Shown: positions 8,276-57,930 of the stretch, in pieces
Layout: each line of letters opens with the position of its first letter
How positions within the stretch are numbered: the first letter of the stretch is position 1
NCBI GenBank assembly: GCA_012271065.1
Contig: JAAXHE010000112.1
Location: 3,784-67,783, forward strand
Source of the DNA: Candidatus Latescibacterota bacterium
GTDB taxonomy: Bacteria; Latescibacterota; UBA2968; GCA-2709665
Direction: 5' to 3'
DNA length: 64,000 bases
Made by a program: the position numbers and the translations under genes
The notes under the pieces: generated by a model
Told to the model about the DNA's origin: nothing
Database searches by the model: none
Seen by the model: only the letters and a program-made list of their open reading frames with translations

Positions 8276-8412
8276 CTGGGGAGACGGTAGAGGTGAGACG
8301 GGAGAGATTGCCTGCCCCGTAAGTTTTCCGATTAGACCGCAGGCATAGAGGAAGCGCAGATCGGGCAAGGGTTTCATCTAACGTCTACCGGCTCATGTCT
8401 TCCCGCCTTTGA
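8276..8412. repeat. Dispersed repeat family 1, copy A
   Basis: Intergenic element of about 135 bp, related to copies at 16418-16556 and 48161-48290. Shared blocks in order are GAGACGG.AGA near the left end, GGGAGAGATTG(A)CTGCC, a GTAAG/GTGAG step, GCAAGGG(T/C)TTC and a right end near CTACCG followed by TCTCCC-type bases. The ends are roughly inverted. This copy is the most diverged. It sits between the RACo stop and the metF start. Confidence 0.7.
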
Positions 8413-16321: not shown

Positions 16322-16417
16322 TGAGTATACCATATTCCACCGGGGATGTCAAGCCAAAACATATTGCGGAACCGGTGCGCGGGTGTTATCGTTAGTCGAA
16401 AGCAAAACCTTAAGAGC

Positions 16418-16556
16418 GGGAAGACGTGAGAGGGGAGAGGGTAGAGATTGACTGCCTTGTGAGGTTTCTTTTCGTGCCGAAGGCGATGAGGAAAAACATA
16501 CCGGCCAAGGATTTCTTCTACCGTCTTACGTCTCCCGTCTCCCCGCCTCACGAAGA
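16418..16556. repeat. Dispersed repeat family 1, copy B
   Basis: About 138 bp, ending 60 bp upstream of nagA. It shares with copy C the core GAGATTGACTGCCTTGTGAG, then TCTTTTCGTGCCG, and on the right TTCTTCTACCGTCTTACG. GGGAGACG/CGTCTCCC-like bases recur at both ends. Not coding in any frame of note. Together with the divergent promoter region it fills the 380 bp between 16237 and 16616. Confidence 0.8.
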
Positions 16557-22284: not shown

Positions 22285-22697
22285 TTGCGTGGGCTATTGC
22301 ATTTCTCCCTGACTGACCGAACGATGTTTCGGAACACGGGTACCGGTTTCCCCGCCGTTGTTCTTGCGCTGACGAATCCTATCTGGACCGTGAAATCCTA
22401 TGTTCACGAAAAAATCATATATAAGTCCTTATAAATCAGAATAAAATCATAAATTAACCTGGCAATTATCGTTATCATGGTATACAATGGAATCTATTGT
22501 CATACAAACGCAAATTAAACCGGTACGGCATCGCGAATCACGCCCAGTCTTCTGTGTAGGGGCGTCCCTTGTGGGCGCCCGCATCGCGAAGGACCGGTGT
22601 GAGGGTGGGGCGGACATTCCTGTCTGCCCAGGTGCGCAAGACCTGTCTTTCTGGTTCAAACCATGACCTGCTTGTAGGTACATATCACGTAAATACC
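22285..22697. other. Intergenic region with AT-rich stretch and hairpin repeats
   Basis: 22390-22500 is AT-rich, unlike its surroundings, and may hold divergent promoters. 22557-22585 is an imperfect GGGCG...CGCCC hairpin. 22596-22629 is an inverted copy of repeat family 2. No gene is supported; a short minus-strand frame here is built from the repeat. Confidence 0.6.
22596..22629 (-). repeat. Dispersed hairpin repeat family 2, copy 1
   Basis: On the minus strand GGGC-A-GACA-GGAA-TGTC-C-GCCC, then CACCCTCACACC. The GNRA-type GGAA loop is closed by paired GACA/TGTC and GGGC/GCCC arms. Other copies: 26397-26435, 51256-51284 and 52441-52477. Confidence 0.8.
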
Positions 22698-26260: not shown

Positions 26261-26649
26261 CGGATGTTCCCTGGTTGAAACATGCCATTTAGTTTGCGTT
26301 GATCGGCCGACCGGCCATTCCGGGCCGTGCGAAGAAATCGTGGACGTGCCGTCAATCAGGTTTCGTCACGTGCAAGCGGAGACAGCGACGGCGTCGATGC
26401 GGGCAGACAGGAATGTCCGCCCCACCCTCACACCGGCTTCTTCCGCGTCCGGAAGAAGCCGGGACGCCTCTATCGGGACGGGATGCCGGGGTCCCCGTGA
26501 CACGATCTGATTGGCAACGGCAAGTAACAGAGGAAGGATTGAGGTGGGTGACTCTTGCGGATTTACCGACGGCAGGAAGTGTGAAATCGCTCGACGAATG
26601 CCGCGGGCAATGGAAACGCCTGAGCAATTCCTGTGACACGCCAATGCGA
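26261..26649. other. Intergenic region with repeat family 2
   Basis: 389 bp. Holds the repeat at 26397-26435 followed by an imperfect CCGGCTTCTTCC/GGAAGAAGCCGG hairpin (26433-26461). A plus-strand frame spans it but shows no family and has repeat-derived residues, so I do not call a gene. Confidence 0.6.
26397..26461 (+). repeat. Dispersed hairpin repeat family 2, copy 2, with adjoining hairpin
   Basis: GGGC-A-GACA-GGAA-TGTC-C-GCCC then CACCCTCACACCGG, matching copy 1 over about 34 bases. The adjoining CCGGCTTCTTCC...GGAAGAAGCCGG arms give a second, 12-bp perfect stem. Confidence 0.8.
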
Positions 26650-47971: not shown

Positions 47972-48160
47972 CCTGGCATTCGCGTGGTCCATTCGAAATC
48001 GAAATCTTTTGTCGACCGGCTTGATATATCGTAACATGATAAATTCCAATATGATAGACGCGGCACACTCTTTAAGGTACGAATGTTGCATGCTCTATGG
48101 GCCTATAACAGGTTACCGAAATCTGGCCGTCGAGTAGCAGCAAACGAGGCCGCCAGCAAA

Positions 48161-48290
48161 AAGAGGGTAGACGTAAGCCGGTAGACGGGAGAGATTGACT
48201 GCCTTGTGAGGTCTCTTTTCGTGCCGGAGGCAAGAAAGAATAAAACATCGAGCAAGGGCTTCTTCTACCGTCTACCCTCTCACCGCTTTT
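48161..48290. repeat. Dispersed repeat family 1, copy C
   Basis: Best-preserved copy. The ends are an 11-bp perfect inverted repeat, GAGGGTAGACG (48163-48173) and CGTCTACCCTC (48269-48279). The inner core is GAGATTGACTGCCTTGTGAG, then TCTCTTTTCGTGCCGGAGGC and CGAGCAAGGGCTTCTTCTAC. No coding capacity. Confidence 0.85.
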
Positions 48291-52702: not shown

Positions 52703-53509
52703 TCATCCCGATTCTGAGCCGGTCTGTTCGGCTGGGTATGCGTTCAGCCCACGTATGCGGACAATAATGTCCTCGACGGTTTCGGTGACCGCCGAAAGCA
52801 GCGCATCCCGATCATCAATGACCACCTGCGCGTCTGCATAGCGGTATCGTACAGCGTACCTTGAAAGCCAAGCCAGCTTCTCCCCGGCCGGGGTGTGGCT
52901 TTCGGCCGGGTGCTGTCGCACGATAGCGGCAAGCTTCGCCAGATCGTGCGTGTTACGATAGTCGTCATCAAGCGCGGAAATCCAGCCCTTCAGCGCGTTT
53001 TCCATTGCCTGTTGGGCGTGAAACCCGATGGCCGCCTGAGAAGACCGGGAGTCTTCCACAAGGACTTCCAGATCTCTGAGACTCCGCCTGGCATTGGCGA
53101 CACGTTGCCGTATATCGGGCCAGTTGGACGGTTCCGGGTTCTCGTAGTTTACTCTGTCTCCATTCCCGTCGATACCGTCACGGACGGCCTGGCCTGCCAC
53201 GTGGTTTCGCGCCCGGCGACCGTCGTGGAAGGCTCTCTCGTTCAGGTGGACCAGATCGACGCCGATCAAGTCGCCATACAGTTCGTCGACCTTGCGGTGG
53301 GCCGCCACGCTCGTGTCCTGATACTCCTGCTGATCCGTGAAATCGGAGTCGGTAATGATGAGCAGGTCGATATCCGAATGCGGGCTGTAGTCGCCGCGGG
53401 CTCGAGAGCCGAACAGGATGACCCGGTTCGGGCGGACCGCTTCGCCGACAGCCCGGGCGACGGCGCGGGCCTTCGGGTCGGGCGCCTTGCGTGTAGTTGG
53501 CATTGACAT
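52703..53509 (-). CDS. Fused MNT nucleotidyltransferase-HEPN protein
   Basis: 268 aa. N-terminal minimal nucleotidyltransferase with FGSRARGDYSPHSDIDLLI (Gly34-Ser35, Asp46, Asp48). C-terminal all-helical HEPN domain from about 140 (ARRSLRDLEVL, AAIGFHAQQAMENALKGWI, THDLAKL). MntA and HepT are normally two genes of a toxin-antitoxin pair in which MNT AMPylates the HEPN RNase; here both are one chain. The HEPN R-x4-6-H catalytic motif is not obvious, so it may be inactive. ATG at 53509 preceded by GGAGGG. Confidence 0.85.
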   Translation of the reverse strand: MSMPTTRKAPDPKARAVARAVGEAVRPNRVILFGSRARGDYSPHSDIDLLIITDSDFTDQQEYQDTSVAAHRKVDELYGDLIGVDLVHLNERAFHDGRRARNHVAGQAVRDGIDGNGDRVNYENPEPSNWPDIRQRVANARRSLRDLEVLVEDSRSSQAAIGFHAQQAMENALKGWISALDDDYRNTHDLAKLAAIVRQHPAESHTPAGEKLAWLSRYAVRYRYADAQVVIDDRDALLSAVTETVEDIIVRIRGLNAYPAEQTGSESG

Positions 53510-53593
53510 GGTGAACAGATACCCTCCGCGCCTCACCGCCGTTTGTTGTTCTTCCGGTCGCCGCGGCGCCGGGGATTAGATTGAGGCCGTGGC

Positions 53594-55033: not shown

Positions 55034-55833
55034 TTATTGCCCGGTCCCGGTTTTCATGTTCTCCCCTGTTCCCTGATCAATCCTCGTCTGCTCGTCAAGC
55101 CGGCGTTTTTCTTCCACGCGTCTTTTCAGTTCCAGGATGGCATTCCGGTATTTCCCGCTGGATTTTCGGGCGTAGGCTTCCTGTAGAGCGGTGCGCGCCT
55201 GGTCGAACCGGTCCGAATACATGCAACTCAGTCCAAGGTCGTAGTAGGCCTTGTGGATCTCGGGAGAATTGGAGTAAGTCCGTGTTGCCTCCTGAAAGAC
55301 GTCGACCGCGGCGTCCCAGTTACCCATCTGGACCATTCTGAAGCCACGTTCCAATTCCGGTATTCCCTTGTCGGTATCAAACGAGACATAAACGCGCTCG
55401 GTGTATGGCACGATCATCCGTTCCAGGGCCCGGACGATGTCCGTCCGGCATTCCGCGAAGAGCCGCTTGCGATCCGCATTGTCAATGCTTGCCTTCTTCG
55501 GACTTTTCCCCGAGGTCCTTATCGTCTCACGCCTGGTGAGATTCCTGCTGGCCAGAATCCTGGATGTCTGCAAGTCCACGACTCGCAATTGGACTTCCAC
55601 GTGTCTCCGGATTCCACTCCCTGCAGAAATTTACCCAGATCATCCAGTTTCGATACAAAACCGCTGCCAGGACCCTTGATTTCGCCAATTGCGATCCTGT
55701 CATAATCGCCCAGGTTGACTTCGGCCGGACGGGTTACGAGAATGGAGACGCTCCTGCCGGCACAACCTGTAATCCGTCCCGTAACGACAAGGGCTGAAAG
55801 TACGATGAGATTGCGAGTACACATTCTGTTCAT
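55034..55833 (-). pseudogene. Lipoprotein with TPR-like C-terminus, frameshifted
   Basis: Two overlapping minus frames make one protein. The N-terminal part (55833-55519) has a lipoprotein signal (GRITGCAGRS) and VNLGDYDRIAIGEIKGPGSGF. The C-terminal part (from about 55608 to 55034) reads VEVQLRVVDLQTSRILASRNL, then ERVYVSFD, IPELERGFRMVQMGNWDAAVDVF and TPR-like repeats. The join falls in GTGGAATCCGGAGACACG, where the frame changes and the CsgG/LpoB-like middle expected between the two parts is short. Likely decayed by deletion plus frameshift. Confidence 0.7.
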
Positions 55834-55955: not shown

Positions 55956-56192
55956 TCATATACGTTTCGCTATTTCGGGCTGGATTTCTTCATACTCGGG
56001 AAAGCGGCCCTCTTTGAGCTTGGAAAAGGCGAGGTCGCCGTCGATGGTAACTTCAAAACGTCCGCCGCCGGCGGGAATGAGCGTGAAGCTATCGATGTCC
56101 TGCTTGAATTCTCTCAAAAGCCTGTCCGTCAAACTGACGGTTTCGTCTTCGTAGCCTCAAGCCGCGCAGTATTCGATGTCGATTCTGGGCAT
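55956..56192 (-). CDS. Candidate selenoprotein, SelW/SelT/SelH (Rdx) family, in-frame TGA as selenocysteine
   Basis: 78 aa if the TGA at 56157-56159 is read as Sec. The chain starts MPRIDIEYCAA-U-GYEDE, giving the redox motif C9-x-x-U12 of the thioredoxin-like Rdx family. It continues TDRLLREFKQDIDSFTLIPAGGGRFEVTIDGDLAFSKLKEGRFPEYEEI, the family's G-G-x-F-E-V core and G.FPE end. AAGGAGG lies 7 bp before the ATG, a TTGACA-17-TATATT promoter lies upstream, and a SECIS-like hairpin follows the TGA. Conventional gene callers would split or miss it. Alternative: a TGA-truncated remnant, but intact codons after it argue against this. Confidence 0.82.
56126..56140 (-). promoter_or_regulatory. Putative bacterial SECIS element
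   Basis: On the coding strand CCGTCA-GTT-TGACGG, a 6-bp perfect stem with a GTT apical loop, beginning 17 nt after the TGA. A G at the first loop position and a loop 23-25 nt downstream of UGA fit the bacterial SECIS consensus. Confidence 0.65.
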
Positions 56193-56266
56193 ACGGCGCC
56201 TCCTTGACGTCTGCGGTTGAAAACCGGTTCCGGGGCGGATGACGGGGTGTTTTCCGGGGATGTTTT

Positions 56267-56295
56267 AATATATCTCGTACCGCCATGATTGTCAA
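56267..56295 (-). promoter_or_regulatory. Sigma70-type promoter of the selenoprotein gene
   Basis: On the minus strand TTGACA (56290-56295), 17 bp, TATATT (56267-56272). It is the best promoter match in the window, about 75 bp upstream of the ATG. Confidence 0.8.
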
Positions 56296-56418
56296 CGTCG
56301 GAAGCTGTTTTAAAATCCCTGGTGCATATTGGGAATCCGCTTGACCGTAAACGTGGCGAGGGTTAGATTTCAGCGGCAATCGAAGCGGTTGTCGGCGAGG
56401 CACGAAGGGAGAACTGCA

Positions 56419-57930
56419 ATGTCCACGCAACAGGCGTACGAGGACCTCATCGGTCATTGGAAGGAACTCCAGTTGCTGGAGTCCTGCGCGGCCGTGCTGG
56501 GTTGGGACGAACGCACGTATATGCCCCGCGGCGGCGCGGCGCACCGCGCCGAACAGCACGCCTTGCTGGCCGGGATGGCGCACGAGCGGGCGACGGCGCC
56601 TGAGGTGGGAGAATTGCTGTGGCGCATCGAAGACGGTGATGAGCACTTCCGGCCGGACTCGGCGCCCGCCGTGAACGTGCGGGAAATCCGGCGCGACTAC
56701 GACCGACGGACGAAGTTGCCGCAGTCCCTGGTGGTAGCGCTCGCGAAGGCAACGACGCTGGCGGAGCAGGCCTGGCAGGAAGCGCGGGAGAAATCGGCGT
56801 ACGAAGTGTTCCGTCCGCATCTCAAAGAGGTGGTAGGGCTCACTCGGGAGATGGCGACTGCGCTAAGGACCGAAGGTTCGGCATACGACGCGCTCCTGGA
56901 CCGGTTTGAACCCGGAGAGACCTCACAGAATCTCAAGAAGGTGTTTGGAGCGCTCAGAGACGAACTGGCCCCGCTGGTCGCGGCGATTGTGGATTCGGGA
57001 AGGGCGCCAGACGCATCGATCCTTACCCGCGACTATCCCGTGACGGATCAGGCGTCTTTCGGCGTCGCCGCGGCGACGGCCATTGGTTTCGACTTCGAGC
57101 GCGGGCGGCTGGATGAAACCGTGCACCCATTCTGTTCGGGGATCGGCCCCGGAGACACGAGAATAACCACCAGGTACGACCGCAACCAGTTTGCGCAGGC
57201 TTTCTTCGGGACGCTCCACGAGGCGGGTCACGGCATGTATGACCAGGGACTGGATGACGCGCATTCGGGAACGCCGATGGCAGACGCCGTGTCTCTGGGA
57301 ATTCACGAGTCCCAGTCCCGGATGTGGGAGAATTTCGTGGGGCGCTGCCGGGCGTTCTGGACGCACTTTTTTCCGAAAGCGCGGGATGTGTTTCCCGCGG
57401 CTCTGACGGACGTATCGCCGGATGCGTTCTATTTCGCGGTAAACGATGTGCGGCCCTCGTTCATCCGGGTGGAAGCGGATGAGGCCACGTACAACTTGCA
57501 CATTCTGCTGCGATTCGCGCTGGAGGAGGCGCTGGTGGAGGGCGATCTGACGGTAGCGGACGTCCCCGGCGCGTGGAACGAGCGGTTCGAAAAGGATTTC
57601 GGCTTGAATCCGCCGGACGATGCGCACGGGTGTCTTCAGGACGTGCACTGGAGTGCGGGGTTGATCGGATACTTCCCTACCTACACGCTTGGAAATCTCT
57701 ACGCCGCTCAGTTTTTCGAAGCGGCCCGCACGGATCTTGGCGATCTCGACGGGCAGTTCGCCAAAGGAATGTTCGGCCCGCTGCTGGGTTGGCTGAGGGA
57801 CAGGATCCATCGGCACGGTATGCGCTATAAGGCGACGGAACTGGTGGAGGTGGTTTCAGGGGAACCCCTGGGTCACAGGGCATTGATGACGCATCTGAAG
57901 GCCAAATTCGGACCGTTGTATGGGGTTTGA
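56419..57930 (+). CDS. Carboxypeptidase Taq (M32 family metallocarboxypeptidase)
   Basis: 503 aa. Metal-binding HEAGH at 267-271 (TLHEAGHGMYDQG), then HESQSRMWEN with the third ligand Glu, DYPVTDQ and FCSGIGPGDTRITTRY substrate-side blocks. Cytoplasmic, all-helical exopeptidase. ATG at 56419 follows AAGGGAGAACTGCA; in-frame codons from 56329 lack a ribosome site. Confidence 0.93.
   Translation: MSTQQAYEDLIGHWKELQLLESCAAVLGWDERTYMPRGGAAHRAEQHALLAGMAHERATAPEVGELLWRIEDGDEHFRPDSAPAVNVREIRRDYDRRTKLPQSLVVALAKATTLAEQAWQEAREKSAYEVFRPHLKEVVGLTREMATALRTEGSAYDALLDRFEPGETSQNLKKVFGALRDELAPLVAAIVDSGRAPDASILTRDYPVTDQASFGVAAATAIGFDFERGRLDETVHPFCSGIGPGDTRITTRYDRNQFAQAFFGTLHEAGHGMYDQGLDDAHSGTPMADAVSLGIHESQSRMWENFVGRCRAFWTHFFPKARDVFPAALTDVSPDAFYFAVNDVRPSFIRVEADEATYNLHILLRFALEEALVEGDLTVADVPGAWNERFEKDFGLNPPDDAHGCLQDVHWSAGLIGYFPTYTLGNLYAAQFFEAARTDLGDLDGQFAKGMFGPLLGWLRDRIHRHGMRYKATELVEVVSGEPLGHRALMTHLKAKFGPLYGV

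What the first reader, a model, noticed from the sequence alone, without database searches (positions are those of the whole stretch)
55956..56192. Candidate UGA-encoded selenoprotein of the SelW/SelT/SelH family
A minus-strand frame of 78 codons is interrupted only by TGA at codon 12, which completes C-x-x-U. Downstream codons keep the Rdx family core. A strong ribosome site, a TTGACA-17-TATATT promoter and a CCGTCA-GTT-TGACGG hairpin 17 nt after the TGA support real use. It would mean the host has selAB/selC outside this window.
Basis: partly seen in the sequence, partly recalled or inferred. Interest (0 to 1): 0.85.

Follow-up and report, generated by a model that had tools for sequence, protein, structure and literature searches.

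The report
Bacterial SelW-like selenoprotein with UGA codon
A small redox protein gene in an uncultured bacterium very probably reads a stop codon (UGA) as the rare amino acid selenocysteine; it is a new example of a selenoprotein family already known to be common in marine microbes.

Summary
Observation confirmed, interpretation supported. Window 56192-55956 (minus strand) is a 78-codon frame whose only internal stop is TGA at codon 12, completing C-x-x-U. With that TGA read as a residue it matches Pfam Rdx (E 9.8e-21), and its model matches solved SelW-related structures (TM up to 0.93). The window's own assembly is not held. The nearest genome has the gene 95% identical with the same TGA, selA-selB-selC side by side and selD. 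Of 60 relatives, 44 carry the gene (48 copies), all with TGA at this codon. All 44 have selD and 37 have all four sel genes above the thresholds used; 13 of the 16 without the gene have none. The codons after the TGA are under purifying selection. The hairpin behind it is conserved, though alone it is weak evidence: 5% of synonymous resamplings give one. Distant homologues have Cys there. [quoted passage not shown] Selenocysteine in the protein itself is inferred, not shown.

The parts
55956..56192 (-). selW-like selenoprotein gene, 78 codons plus TGA stop, CxxU active site
   Evidence: Rdx PF10262 E 9.8e-21; TIGR02174 above cut-off
56157..56159 (-). in-frame TGA, codon 12, read as selenocysteine (inferred)
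   Evidence: TGA in 54 of 55 extracted rows (50 distinct loci once 4 repeats are dropped), TGT (Cys) in the remaining one, Halomonas L015
56126..56140 (-). bSECIS-like hairpin CCGUCA-GUU-UGACGG after a 16-nt spacer; loop starts with G, 22 nt after the TGA
   Evidence: 17-nt fold -7.6 kcal/mol, z -3.57; 98.2% of pair cells formed in 37 distinct sequences, one pair changed on both sides in 8 of them
56199..56205 (-). ribosome-binding site AAGGAGG, 6 nt before the ATG
   Evidence: AAGGAGGCGCC is shared by the 5 genus-level sequences printed
56267..56295 (-). sigma-70-like promoter TTGACA-17-TATATT
   Evidence: same hexamers and 17-nt spacing in 4 of the 5 genus-level sequences printed, window included (L020 lacks them within 150 nt)

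Best explanation
It is a gene for a SelW-like (Rdx family) selenoprotein. SelB carrying Sec-tRNA(Sec) (anticodon UCA) binds the hairpin just downstream of the UGA while that codon is in the ribosome and inserts selenocysteine. This gives a 78-residue thioredoxin-fold protein with a Cys-x-x-Sec redox pair; the second TGA, at codon 79, is an ordinary stop. Shown here: the frame, its conservation, family and predicted fold, the conserved hairpin, and the sel genes in near relatives. Inferred: that the UGA is decoded as Sec in this cell, that SelB binds this hairpin (established for bacterial selenoproteins in general), and that the protein is a thiol/selenol oxidoreductase (substrate unknown).
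For: Family and fold. TGA at codon 12 in all 48 matches in 44 of 60 relatives. Window against four congeners: 66 downstream codons dN 0.020-0.115, dS 0.098-0.963; 10 upstream codons with 0-2 synonymous and 0 non-synonymous changes. Sec genes; selA, selB and a UCA-anticodon tRNA in a row in G001; selD with its own in-frame TGA in G001 and in 40 of the 47 selD matches over the cut-off. Hairpin: same third base in codons 18, 19, 21 and 22 in 54 of 54 rows, pair counts; the Cys homologue of Halomonas lacks it. Cys at the position in distant homologues.
Against: The window's own assembly is not held, so its sel genes are inferred from congeners. No Rfam match at the hairpin. The 50-nt fold is not unusually stable (z -0.55). 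Of the 50 distinct TGA loci, 10 miss the -7.5 kcal/mol limit narrowly (-6.8 to -7.2) and 3 second-copy genes have no hairpin at or below -5 by my test. Only one stem pair shows changes on both sides, a number that 198 of 500 shuffles reach. Five SelW genomes have no tRNA-Sec match of 65 bits or more, and 2 each lack selA or selB over the cut-off. No expression or mass-spectrometry data.
Confidence: 0.96

Rival explanations
1. The full-length frame is a pseudogene or an assembly error: a Cys codon (TGC/TGT) mutated or was misread to TGA.
For: One base separates TGA from TGC/TGT, and Cys sits there in distant homologues.
Against: The same TGA is in 49 other loci from 45 other genomes, with purifying selection downstream among congeners.
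Confidence: 0.01
2. The real product is a 58-residue protein started at TTG codon 21, downstream of the TGA, as databases list it.
For: Of 130 database proteins in hand, 61 begin after the TGA, 56 of them at the position of residue 21.
Against: That start lies inside the hairpin and leaves out the CxxU site. The 10 codons before the TGA show only synonymous changes among five congeneric sequences, and the ribosome site and promoter lie before the ATG. Starting after an assumed stop is what gene callers do with Sec genes (recalled).
Confidence: 0.02
3. TGA is read as tryptophan throughout this genome, with no selenocysteine here.
For: 18 database relatives show W at the position.
Against: 5 of 8 neighbouring genes checked end at TGA (lon, PhoX-like, nucleotidyltransferase, M32 peptidase, RsgA). 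The nearest genome has selA, selB, selD and a UCA tRNA-Sec.
Confidence: 0.01

Closest known systems
SelW-like bacterial selenoproteins (CxxU) of marine microbes, Sargasso Sea and GOS surveys (PMC1088965, PMC2398784; passages seen)
   Same: Same family name and CxxU motif, in-frame UGA followed by a small hairpin with G in the apical loop
   Different: Host lineage: nearest records are MAGs labelled Gemmatimonadota, one close protein Candidatus Latescibacteria. No mention of selenoproteins in that lineage turned up in the searches (listings) or in the passages
Cys-type bacterial SelW-related proteins with solved structures (2FA8, 2P0G, 2OBK, 2OKA, 3DEX, 2OJL)
   Same: Same fold (TM by query length 0.84-0.93), aligned over nearly the whole chain
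   Different: Cys in place of Sec: CxxC in the five alignments printed (2OJL not printed); 26-35% identical
Mouse selenoprotein W (2NPB)
   Same: Rdx family by sequence, similar fold (TM 0.67)
   Different: Eukaryotic, SECIS element in the 3' untranslated region (recalled); 26% identical

Membership tests
SelW-like selenoprotein (Rdx family) | Rdx domain above the curated cut-off | tested here: met
   PF10262 74.2 bits, cut-off 22.6; TIGR02174 63.7 bits, cut-off 34.2. The narrower Campylobacter equivalog NF041051 is not reached (75.2 against 88)
SelW-like selenoprotein (Rdx family) | CxxU (Cys homologues CxxC) near the N-terminus | tested here: met
   C9-x-x-TGA12; first Cys in 69 of 69 and Cys at the second position in 51 of 69 database homologues that reach it, W in the other 18
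SelW-like selenoprotein (Rdx family) | Thioredoxin-like SelW fold | tested here: met
   AlphaFold pLDDT 96.2, with Cys for Sec; best PDB matches are SelW-related chains
Bacterial selenoprotein gene | bSECIS model: 3-9 nt apical loop, 4-16 bp stem, G in the first two loop positions, 16-37 nt from the UGA, energy at or below -7.5 (as stated in PMC13188914) | tested here: met
   loop 3 nt GUU, 6 bp, 22 nt from the UGA, -7.6 kcal/mol with one flanking base each side
Bacterial selenoprotein gene | selA, selB, selC, selD in the genome | tested here: inconclusive
   Own assembly not held; all four present in the four genus-level genomes G001-G004
Bacterial selenoprotein gene | Selenium in the protein at this residue | not testable with these tools
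   Needs 75Se labelling or mass spectrometry

The most novel reading that the evidence does not exclude
A whole class of uncultured bacteria (records labelled Gemmatimonadota or Latescibacteria) uses selenocysteine by default, with a lineage-wide SelW hairpin (CCGYC-RGNNU-GRCGG) frozen at synonymous sites; one genus has a second SelW selenoprotein with a Cys-Cys tail that could hand electrons to the CxxU centre.
Probability: 0.3. Interest if true: 0.4.

Novelty: new member of a known kind. Interest (0 to 1): 0.27.

Why it matters
It adds a lineage of uncultured bacteria to the users of selenocysteine. It also shows how public databases lose such genes: of 130 database relatives in hand, 61 are cut down to fragments that start after the TGA and 18 show W at the position. 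The conserved hairpin family gives a ready set for testing what SelB of this lineage requires.

Tried and rejected
Rfam scan of the whole window at gathering thresholds and of 56060-56230 at E up to 10: nothing. The 50-nt stretch after the TGA does not fold better than its shuffles (z -0.55). A pseudogene, an assembly error, a downstream start and a changed genetic code were considered and rejected (see rivals). A list of all frames of 300 aa or more in the window under TGA=U was made but not evaluated, so I cannot say whether the window holds other Sec genes.

Literature on selenoproteins in this lineage: searches were seen as listings only (15 of 342 listed; 10 of 12 listed). Passages were seen of PMC8318568 and PMC9999580, of PMC1088965 and PMC2398784 and of PMC13188914 (and its SECIS section in full). 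The deep-Sep paper PMC12013277 was seen as a listing only, because one search failed.

For tRNA-Sec I counted matches of 65 bits or more (42 of 60 genomes) and not the family cut-off of 47 bits (45 of 60). The weaker matches look like other tRNAs: 5 of 14 control genomes pass the cut-off for tRNA-Sec against 1 of 14 for selA. With the stricter limit 5 SelW genomes have no counted tRNA-Sec (G025, G032, G033, G034, G037); with the family cut-off 3 (G025, G033, G034), and then G055, which has no SelW, counts as having one. I take these for gaps in incomplete assemblies, but did not check. Matches below cut-off to selB, selD and tRNA-Sec occur in all 60 genomes, because those families have common relatives, so only matches above the limits were counted. 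The genome lists were typed by hand.

Full report
What is there. One search shows the minus strand and its translation with TGA read as U: MPRIDIEYCAAUGYEDETVSLTDRLLREFKQDIDSFTLIPAGGGRFEVTIDGDLAFSKLKEGRFPEYEEIQPEIAKRI, followed by a TGA stop. The gene lies beside a divergent M32 carboxypeptidase gene (frame 56329-57930) and, downstream, a TPR gene that is split into two frames in the window.

Family and fold. With C in place of the TGA residue the protein matches Pfam Rdx (E 9.8e-21) and NCBIfam TIGR02174 CXXU_selWTH above its cut-off. By sequence it matches 8 solved Rdx-type chains at E below 0.001, mouse SelW among them; four further rows at E 0.67-1.6 are chance matches to sliding clamps. 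The AlphaFold model built on 21 sequences has mean pLDDT 96.2. Its 21 best PDB rows are chains of those bacterial SelW-related proteins (TM by query length 0.84-0.93), then MIEN1 (0.75) and mouse SelW (0.67).

The TGA is kept. The window's own assembly is not held. The nearest held genome, G001, shares 21% of 31-letter words. Of 60 relatives searched, 44 carry the gene, 48 matches in all, each with an in-frame TGA. I extracted those 48, the window and the six loci, 55 rows in all; four rows (L010-L013) repeat L008, L019, L020 and L022. Codon 12 is TGA in 54 rows, that is 50 distinct loci, and TGT in one, Halomonas L015. The final stop varies among TGA, TAA and TAG. Against four congeners the 10 codons before the TGA have 0 to 2 synonymous and no non-synonymous changes, too few for a formal test. 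The 66 codons after it have 4 to 19 synonymous and 3 to 13 non-synonymous codon changes, with dN 0.020-0.115 and dS 0.098-0.963.

Homologues in protein databases. Two searches left 130 proteins in hand besides the query: 27 from the first, and 103 more from the 120 best listed of 5435 reported by the second. Of the 130, 69 reach codon 12: 51 have Cys and 18 have Trp; all 69 have the first Cys. The other 61 start after the TGA, 56 of them at the position of residue 21, which is a TTG in the window's hairpin. I read the Trp cases as gene callers using another code on TGA; their DNA was not examined.

Sec machinery. In 60 relatives, counts above the limits used are selA 45, selB 44, selC 42 (at 65 bits or more; 45 at the family cut-off) and selD 47. 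Among the 44 genomes with SelW: selA 42, selB 42, selC 39, selD 44, all four 37. Among the 16 without it: selA 3, selB 2, selC 3, selD 3; 13 have none. The two SelW genomes without a selB over the cut-off (G014, G025) have partial matches at contig ends. The co-occurrence follows phylogeny (44 of the 47 genomes of the same class or nearer have SelW, none of the 13 more distant), so these are not independent events. In G001 selA (L085:5857-4376), selB (4412-2478) and the tRNA-Sec (2426-2333, anticodon UCA) lie in a row. selD of G001 on L084 has an in-frame TGA at codon 19 followed by a hairpin with a GGUC loop; 40 of the 47 selD matches over the cut-off have a TGA inside.

The hairpin. A 2026 review gives the bacterial SECIS model: loop 3-9 nt, stem 4-16 bp, G in the first two loop positions, 16-37 nt from the UGA, energy at or below -7.5 (PMC13188914, section read). 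The window hairpin fits: 3 nt, 6 bp, G first, 22 nt, -7.6. In my simple version of this test, not the bSECISearch program, 41 of 55 rows pass. The 14 that do not are the Cys gene of Halomonas (another, weaker hairpin, -5.7), three second-copy genes (L009, L068, L069; nothing at or below -5), and ten with -6.8 to -7.2. In 37 distinct 42-nt contexts (the Cys gene left out) 98.2% of pair cells form; sliding the partner drops this to 20-47%. The pair at columns 23-31 goes U-A (18), U-G (11), C-G (8), and the outermost pair is broken in 4. Codons 18, 19, 21 and 22 have the same third base in 54 of 54 rows although their amino acids vary (the 54 include the four repeats, and 15 rows have Met at codon 21, which leaves no choice). 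Controls against my reading: 164 of 1635 TGA triplets in the window are followed by a hairpin that fits the model, and 5.3% of synonymous resamplings give one; the 50-nt fold has z -0.55; the number of pairs changed on both sides is reached by 198 of 500 shuffles, while cells paired, cells changed on both sides and the covariation score are reached by none, a control that relatedness can beat. So one sequence proves little, while the aligned set supports a selected RNA element.

Literature. SelW-like proteins are described as the most abundant selenoprotein family of the Sargasso Sea set (48 genes; PMC1088965, passages) and head the table of the GOS survey (427; PMC2398784, passages). In the held library no paper holds both selenoprotein and Latescibacterota; some searches gave listings of 3, 3 and 12 papers (10 shown), of which passages of two were read and do not describe selenoproteins of this lineage. 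The host label is uncertain: the nearest named records are MAGs called Gemmatimonadota, one close protein is named Candidatus Latescibacteria.

Verdict. A genuine SelW-like selenoprotein gene of an uncultured bacterium: a new member of a known kind. Decoding as Sec is very likely but inferred; substrate and role are unknown beyond a thiol/selenol redox centre.

Noticed in passing
window 55034-55833, minus strand: The gene downstream of selW is one 348-aa frame in L010 but two shorter frames in the window; blastn against L010-L012 shows about 250 bases missing near 55596-55604, with a few bases of overlap at the junction.
   Followed up: partly
L009, L068, L069 (G001:C28, G004:C24, G003:C15): A second SelW-like frame with TGA in three of the four genus-level genomes, with about 39 residues beyond the match that hold a Cys-Cys pair; its hairpin is one pair shorter and weaker.
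   Followed up: partly
L084:506-1621 (G001 selD): selD of the nearest genome is itself a UGA gene at codon 19 with a hairpin behind it (-15.8 kcal/mol for 50 nt, z -1.56); 40 of 47 selD matches over the cut-off have a TGA inside.
   Followed up: partly
G021:C12:44763-44856 and G021:C31:164838-164931: Genome G021 has two tRNA-Sec matches of equal score (69.6 bits) on different contigs.
   Followed up: no
window 52703-53536, minus strand: One frame holds a nucleotidyltransferase domain followed by a HEPN domain, a pair usually split over two genes (recalled).
   Followed up: no
window 8278-8411, 16412-16556, 48159-48281; also L010:127-266: A repeat of roughly 125-140 bases, 74-79% alike, at several places in the window and in relatives.
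   Followed up: no
window 22594-22629 and 26401-26436: A perfect 36-base inverted repeat 3.8 kb apart.
   Followed up: no
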